Source: Latrodectus hesperus
Taxonomy: Eukaryota; Arthropoda; Arachnida; Araneae; Theridiidae
Direction: 5' to 3'
Assembly: GCA_037975125.1 (NCBI GenBank)
Contig: JAJQOW010000014.1
Location: 19,423,484 to 19,487,483, forward strand
DNA: 64,000 bases
Shown: positions 15,062 through 49,479 of the stretch, piece after piece
Layout of the letters: each line of letters starts with the position of its first letter
Numbering within the stretch: the stretch's first letter is position 1
Translations under genes and position numbers: made by a program
The notes under the pieces: model-generated
What the model saw: only the letters and a program-made list of their open reading frames with translations
What the model was told of the DNA's origin: nothing
Databases searched by the model: none

Positions 15062-15295
15062 TCATTCTTTAGATTCTTGTGATGAATTTCTTTGTTTATT
15101 AAAAAATCCACCTTGAATAACGACTGGTATATTGGCAAGAAATTCTGGAGATAAAGATTCTAATACTGGAACCACACCTCCTACCCATCTTACTTGATCT
15201 GAAGATTCCATTTCGGAGGTAGATCTTTCTAAAACTGGACGGTTATTGTGACTTATATTTTGTTGACTTGGCAATGTTGGCGCCACTTCTAAAAC
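15062..15295 (-). CDS. membrane-protein gene, terminal coding exon
   Basis: The acceptor is tccaatag. It encodes 77 residues then TGA, including DQVRWVGGVVPVLESLSPEF and ending SSQESKE. The RW motif followed by hydrophobic residues is a candidate short interaction motif. The gene ends tail-to-tail with BRF1. Confidence 0.82.
   Translation of the reverse strand, partial: VLEVAPTLPSQQNISHNNRPVLERSTSEMESSDQVRWVGGVVPVLESLSPEFLANIPVVIQGGFFNKQRNSSQESKE

Positions 15296-49479: not shown

What the first reader, a model, noticed from the sequence alone, without database searches (positions are those of the whole stretch)
15062..49479. ZP-N-only membrane protein with a very long cytoplasmic tail
The sequence gives ten coding exons whose phases all agree. 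The extracellular part has only the four cysteines of a ZP-N half; the membrane segment begins about 40 residues after the fourth cysteine, so there is no ZP-C. The tail is about 640 residues, roughly three quarters of the protein. Classical ZP proteins carry ZP-N plus ZP-C, a cleavage site and a short tail. An unusual layout like this suggests a receptor or membrane-to-cytoskeleton role rather than a secreted matrix polymer. The role is inference.
Basis: partly seen in the sequence, partly recalled or inferred. Interest (0 to 1): 0.75.

Follow-up and report, generated by a model that had tools for sequence, protein, structure and literature searches.

The report
Spider second copy of Papillote gene
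The window holds a complete, apparently spider, gene for a membrane protein that most likely ties skin cells to the cuticle; it is a fast-evolving second copy of a gene already known from fruit flies as papillote, so the layout is real but not new.

Summary
Ten minus-strand exons rebuild as an 838-residue protein. A Parasteatoda protein matches it end to end at 66% identity, and tblastn places every exon but the 13-codon first. The ectodomain is one four-cysteine ZP-N; the first 21 of 50 listed structural matches are ZP domains. No ZP-C was seen. The roughly 640-residue tail is predicted disordered.

The layout is the rule in its family, arthropod Papillote (Pot). Drosophila Pot, 963 aa, was listed as ZP-N-only in 2006 (PMC1479692). 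In all 209 of 252 family proteins that fitted my pattern, the membrane segment starts 28-40 residues after the fourth cysteine, with no cysteine between.

Less expected: spiders carry two Pot genes. This one (here Pot-B) is the divergent copy. Its tail changes faster than that of the canonical copy, and it lacks a roughly 60-residue block found in 236 of 252 family proteins.

Most likely function: a membrane anchor between cuticle matrix and epidermal cell. The cytoskeletal link is inference; two citing papers give the microtubule contact to Piopio, not Pot.

The parts
49441..49479 (-). coding exon 1, start codon and first half of signal peptide (aa 1-13)
   Evidence: ATG followed by donor gtaagt; 10 of 13 residues as in Parasteatoda P0001, by eye
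43289..43379 (-). coding exon 2, end of signal peptide and short linker (aa 14-44)
   Evidence: weak tblastn hits with P0002, P0006, P0009; second-best of 9 phase-compatible candidates by splice score, and the best of 91 nt
37249..37418 (-). coding exon 3, first part of ZP-N with Cys48, Cys77, Cys96 (aa 44-100)
   Evidence: tblastn 93% identity to P0001; Pfam ZP-N/CUT_N below cut-off
33319..33467 (-). coding exon 4, end of ZP-N with Cys130, CRYPPP and proline-rich stalk (aa 101-150)
   Evidence: tblastn 84% identity to P0001
32021..32495 (-). coding exon 5, stalk, transmembrane helix, juxtamembrane tail with SQITRL and RIPRA motifs (aa 150-308)
   Evidence: tblastn 85% identity to P0001; helix 169-198 in the P0001 model
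27680..27965 (-). coding exon 6, tail (aa 309-404)
   Evidence: tblastn 57% identity to P0001
26860..27222 (-). coding exon 7, tail (aa 404-525)
   Evidence: tblastn 48% identity to P0001
23656..24077 (-). coding exon 8, tail with conserved IRDVADIYLTTTVETES and both WDVxIR-type motifs (aa 525-665)
   Evidence: tblastn 58% identity to P0001; motifs
19744..20031 (-). coding exon 9, tail ending in conserved SSSDSFQSAESLRERSSSE (aa 666-761)
   Evidence: tblastn 64% identity to P0001; conserved island
15062..15295 (-). coding exon 10, C terminus with second ERSxSE motif, conserved WVGGVVPVLESLSPEFLANIPVVIQGGF, and stop codon
   Evidence: tblastn 75% identity to P0001; conserved island

Best explanation
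The gene is a second, divergent paralogue (called Pot-B here) of arthropod Papillote, apparently in a spider. It makes a type I apical membrane protein whose single ZP-N domain binds the ZP-protein and chitin matrix of the forming cuticle, while its long unstructured tail engages the apical cytoskeleton through a few conserved short motifs, so that cuticle is pinned to epidermal cells. Shown here: gene structure, ZP-N fold by model, membrane helix, low-confidence (disordered-looking) tail with conserved islands, homology to Drosophila Pot, and two copies in each of three spider species. Inferred from Drosophila: cuticle anchoring. Inferred only: the tail-cytoskeleton contact, that the ZP-N caps or joins ZP filaments, and that Pot-B has a narrower or shifted role than the canonical copy.
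Against: No functional or expression data for any spider copy. Two citing papers give microtubule binding or anchoring to Piopio, not Pot. Distal-tail similarity between Pot-B and Drosophila Pot is near nothing in BLASTP (23.5 bits or less), and a conserved tail block is lost, so the cytoplasmic role may have changed. Foldseek by itself gave no match under E 0.001 and listed unrelated beta folds beside ZP ones.
Confidence: 0.8

Rival explanations
1. After duplication Pot-B took on something other than cuticle anchoring, for example a scaffold in a spider-specific epithelium such as silk ducts.
For: Faster tail change than the canonical copy: 52-58% against 79-83% tail identity for the same three species pairs. 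Tail block lost in 12 of 13 Pot-B sequences. A C-terminal island (aa 798-825) conserved in Pot-B that I see in no other row of the 12-row alignment.
Against: ZP-N, membrane helix, and the WDVxIR and ERSxSE motifs are kept. No expression evidence for any special tissue.
Confidence: 0.2
2. It belongs to another ZP-N-only family, such as CG16798 or CG10005, or is a truncated cuticlin.
For: Jovine et al. list CG16798 and CG10005 as further ZP-N-only Drosophila proteins; Pfam CUT_N matches about as well as ZP-N.
Against: Where listed hits carry a family name it is mostly pot or papillote; a few carry automatic names (proteoglycan 4-like, titin-like, mucin-2-like, CSPG4, cypher isoform b, ZP-like domain containing protein 2) and none CG16798 or CG10005 (names cut short and lists capped at 120). 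Size and order fit Pot (963 aa, ZP-N 80-167), not CG16798 (561 aa, ZP-N 255-343) or CG10005 (231 aa). Those two sequences were not compared; CG10005 is too short for my searches' length limits.
Confidence: 0.03
3. The exon chain joins two genes, or skips a ZP-C exon.
Against: Colinear full-length proteins in other spiders, exon-by-exon tblastn, no ZP-C seen in the intron.
Confidence: 0.02

Closest known systems
Drosophila Papillote (Pot, CG2467; read here as D. simulans P0174, 963 aa)
   Same: One four-Cys ZP-N ending CRYPPP, short proline-rich stalk, membrane helix, SEITKL and KIPRA juxtamembrane motifs, long tail with WDVxIR-type motifs
   Different: Pot-B is shorter (838 aa), has diverged in the distal tail and lacks the block of about 60 residues
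Canonical spider Pot (Pot-A here: Parasteatoda P0028, 1043 aa; Argiope P0021; Uloborus P0026)
   Same: Same architecture; 56% identity to the window protein up to the end of the membrane segment
   Different: Much more conserved tail, keeps the block, and matches Drosophila Pot in the tail too
Scorpion short Pot (Centruroides P0015, 552 aa)
   Same: Groups with the spider Pot-B clade at 89/70, below the starred level
   Different: Shorter tail, keeps the block, and ends like the canonical copies, not like Pot-B
Classical full ZP-domain proteins (uromodulin, ZP3; Drosophila Piopio, Dumpy)
   Same: ZP-N fold (for uromodulin and ZP3)
   Different: No ZP-C here.

Membership tests
Papillote (Pot) family | single four-cysteine ZP-N without ZP-C | tested here: met
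   Cys 48, 77, 96, 130, none between Cys130 and the membrane segment; no ZP-C seen in the intron; ZP-N fold of the orthologue
Papillote (Pot) family | membrane helix shortly after the fourth Cys | tested here: met
   40 residues in the window protein, the top of the range 28-40 over the 209 of 252 proteins that fitted the pattern
Papillote (Pot) family | long cytoplasmic tail | tested here: met
   about 641 residues; median 740, range 355-860 over the same 209
Papillote (Pot) family | sequence homology to Drosophila Pot | tested here: met
   131 bits, E 2e-35, for the Parasteatoda orthologue; tblastn of P0174 hits window exons 3-5 only
Papillote (Pot) family | distal tail block (KWR...RYE.F..W.VIIR), widespread but not universal | tested here: not met
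   absent from the window protein and not found in the window's six frames. 12 of 13 Pot-B sequences and 4 other hits lack it, so I treat it as a loss within the family, not as a defining feature
Papillote (Pot) family | needed for cuticle attachment and microtubule organisation | not testable with these tools
   needs knock-down and imaging; known for Drosophila from citing passages and a title only
Classical ZP-domain (ZP-N + ZP-C) proteins | ZP-C half | tested here: not met
   no ZP-C seen; none of the 209 fitted relatives has a Cys between C4 and the membrane segment
CG16798 / CG10005 ZP-N-only proteins | closest sequence relationship to those proteins | not tested
   their sequences were not fetched; only lengths and ZP-N positions from PMC1479692

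The most novel reading that the evidence does not exclude
Spiders and scorpions kept a second Papillote gene from their ancient genome duplication. In spiders this copy lost a conserved tail module and gained its own conserved C-terminal island, becoming a distinct cuticle-to-cell linker. The WDVxIR motif, found at least twice in 235 of 252 family tails, is an undescribed docking motif for the apical cytoskeleton.
Probability: 0.3. Interest if true: 0.5.

Novelty: new member of a known kind. Interest (0 to 1): 0.27.

Why it matters
It identifies an unnamed gene as a second spider Papillote and shows that the odd-looking layout is the family rule. It also gives a natural comparison: two copies share the matrix-facing half but differ in the cytoplasmic half. 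Comparing them, and the repeated WDVxIR motif, could show whether and how Pot itself contacts the cytoskeleton; the passages I read name Piopio for the microtubule contact and give no partner for Pot's tail.

Full report
Gene structure. The minus strand of 49479-15062 holds ten exons whose phases agree and which give 838 residues. I rebuilt them from the DNA (reads) and found exon 2 by a phase-constrained scan, where it ranked second of 9 candidates. Splice scores of several borders are modest, so relatives matter more. The best relative, a predicted protein of Parasteatoda tepidariorum (839 aa), matches 66% over 100% of the query; the next rows with names are all spiders, from which I take the window to be from a spider. 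tblastn of ten chosen relatives puts exons 3-10 in order with P0001, P0002, P0006 and P0009, and exon 2 weakly with three of the ten. Exon 1 rests on 10 of 13 residues shared with the Parasteatoda start.

Family. A profile search gave 661 hits at E 1e-6 or better, best 120 listed, among them insect and crustacean proteins named pot or papillote. A dipteran query gave 573, best 120 listed, with Drosophila proteins of 826-1008 aa, most of them 950-990. I examined 252 proteins: 251 fetched plus the window's. My pattern (four spaced cysteines ending CRYPPP, then a hydrophobic segment) fitted 209; in all 209 the segment starts 28-40 residues after the fourth cysteine with no cysteine between, and tails run 355-860 residues, median 740. 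The other 43 did not fit and were dropped from that count; I did not look at why one by one. So the layout is the rule of this family. It is in print: Jovine and others list Papillote/CG2467, 963 aa, ZP-N at 80-167, as ZP-N without ZP-C, citing a 2005 paper (PMC1479692, passages read).

Two spider copies. On a tree of 39 sequences over ZP-N, membrane segment and juxtamembrane tail, the window protein sits in a clade of 9 (100/100; eight from named or presumed spiders by similarity, one unnamed source, P0012), apart from the canonical spider copies. Parasteatoda, Argiope and Uloborus each have both; the contig lengths listed differ between the copies in each of the three, so they appear to lie on different contigs. 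For these three species pairs the tail is 79-83% identical in copy A and 52-58% in copy B. Copy A still aligns with Drosophila Pot in the distal tail (99.8 bits); copy B hardly does. A profile of a tail block of about 60 residues, made from 7 of these proteins, is found in 236 of the 252 (those 7 included). The 16 without it are the window protein, P0001-P0011, P0035, P0037, P0056 and P0059. P0010 and P0011 are called Pot-B by similarity only and were in neither tree; P0012, the most divergent Pot-B, keeps a weak match of 17.9 bits. The block is not found in the window's six frames.

Origin of the duplication. A genome duplication in the ancestor of spiders and scorpions is published (PMC5535294, abstract and outline seen), and different contigs fit it. 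The tree does not settle it: the scorpion 552-aa protein joins Pot-B at 89/70, while holding all spider and scorpion copies as one clade is rejected at p 0.007, both spider copies as one clade at p 0.048, and the two scorpion copies as one clade at p 0.021; spider A with scorpion 844 aa is not rejected, p 0.20. Long branches are in play. Listings of searches of the held library, which lacks most subscription journals, showed no paper on a second spider Papillote; most of those papers were not opened.

Tail motifs. Six-residue WDVxIR-type motifs occur at least once in 242 and at least twice in 235 of 252 tails, mean 3.0 against 0.05 in shuffled tails. The pattern was drawn up after seeing the alignment and the sequences are related, so this shows conservation, not independent cases. 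Within 11 Pot-B sequences the most conserved tail islands include PPSQITRLSG, LSSILGHTVRIPRAVPYSAP, ILSIPKAILR, IRDVADIYLTTTVETESREL, SSSDSFQSAESLRERSSSEVLEVAPTL and WVGGVVPVLESLSPEFLANIPVVIQGGF. The last has no counterpart that I can see in the non-Pot-B rows of the 12-row alignment. No Pfam domain is found in the tail at E 0.01.

Mechanism. In passages on Drosophila: Pio and Pot mediate contact between matrix and epidermal surface (PMC2875407); dumpy acts with pot and pio in attaching matrix to epidermis and in anchoring it to the transalar cytoskeletal array (PMC3650022); loss gives detachment and wing blisters (PMC6303098). Two other papers, read in passages, give the microtubule contact to Piopio: it helps attach gamma-tubulin complexes to the apical membrane (PMC6162459) and 'can bind to MTs' (PMC8649640); neither says so of Pot. 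In PMC10597583 and PMC12045603 the word papillote stood only in the reference list. The founding 2005 paper is known here by title and citations only. I infer for this gene: ZP-N to the matrix, tail towards the cytoskeleton. Which tail motif binds what is unknown.

Verdict. A real, complete and correctly described gene of a known kind; modestly interesting as a fast-evolving second copy.

Noticed in passing
window 6492-6806 (+): ORF matching Pfam BRF1 (TBP-binding domain), E 4.2e-6: perhaps the neighbouring gene, useful for synteny.
   Followed up: partly
window 39633-41203 (+): LTR-retrotransposon remnant in the intron between exons 2 and 3: the first ORF matches RNase H, integrase zinc-binding and, weakly, integrase core; the second ORF has no Pfam match.
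   Followed up: partly
window 18212-18610 (-): 133-residue ORF inside the last intron that resembles a DNA-transposon transposase from memory; no Pfam match.
   Followed up: no
window 36398-36761 and 22271-22528: Long TA-rich simple repeats that give artificial IYIYIY reading frames.
   Followed up: no
family tails, e.g. window 24077-23656: WDVxIR-type motif repeated and conserved across arthropod Papillote tails, partner unknown.
   Followed up: partly
horseshoe crab proteins P0017, P0019, P0029, P0034, P0036, P0038: Horseshoe crabs have several Pot copies; the six in the tree fall in two groups of three.
   Followed up: no
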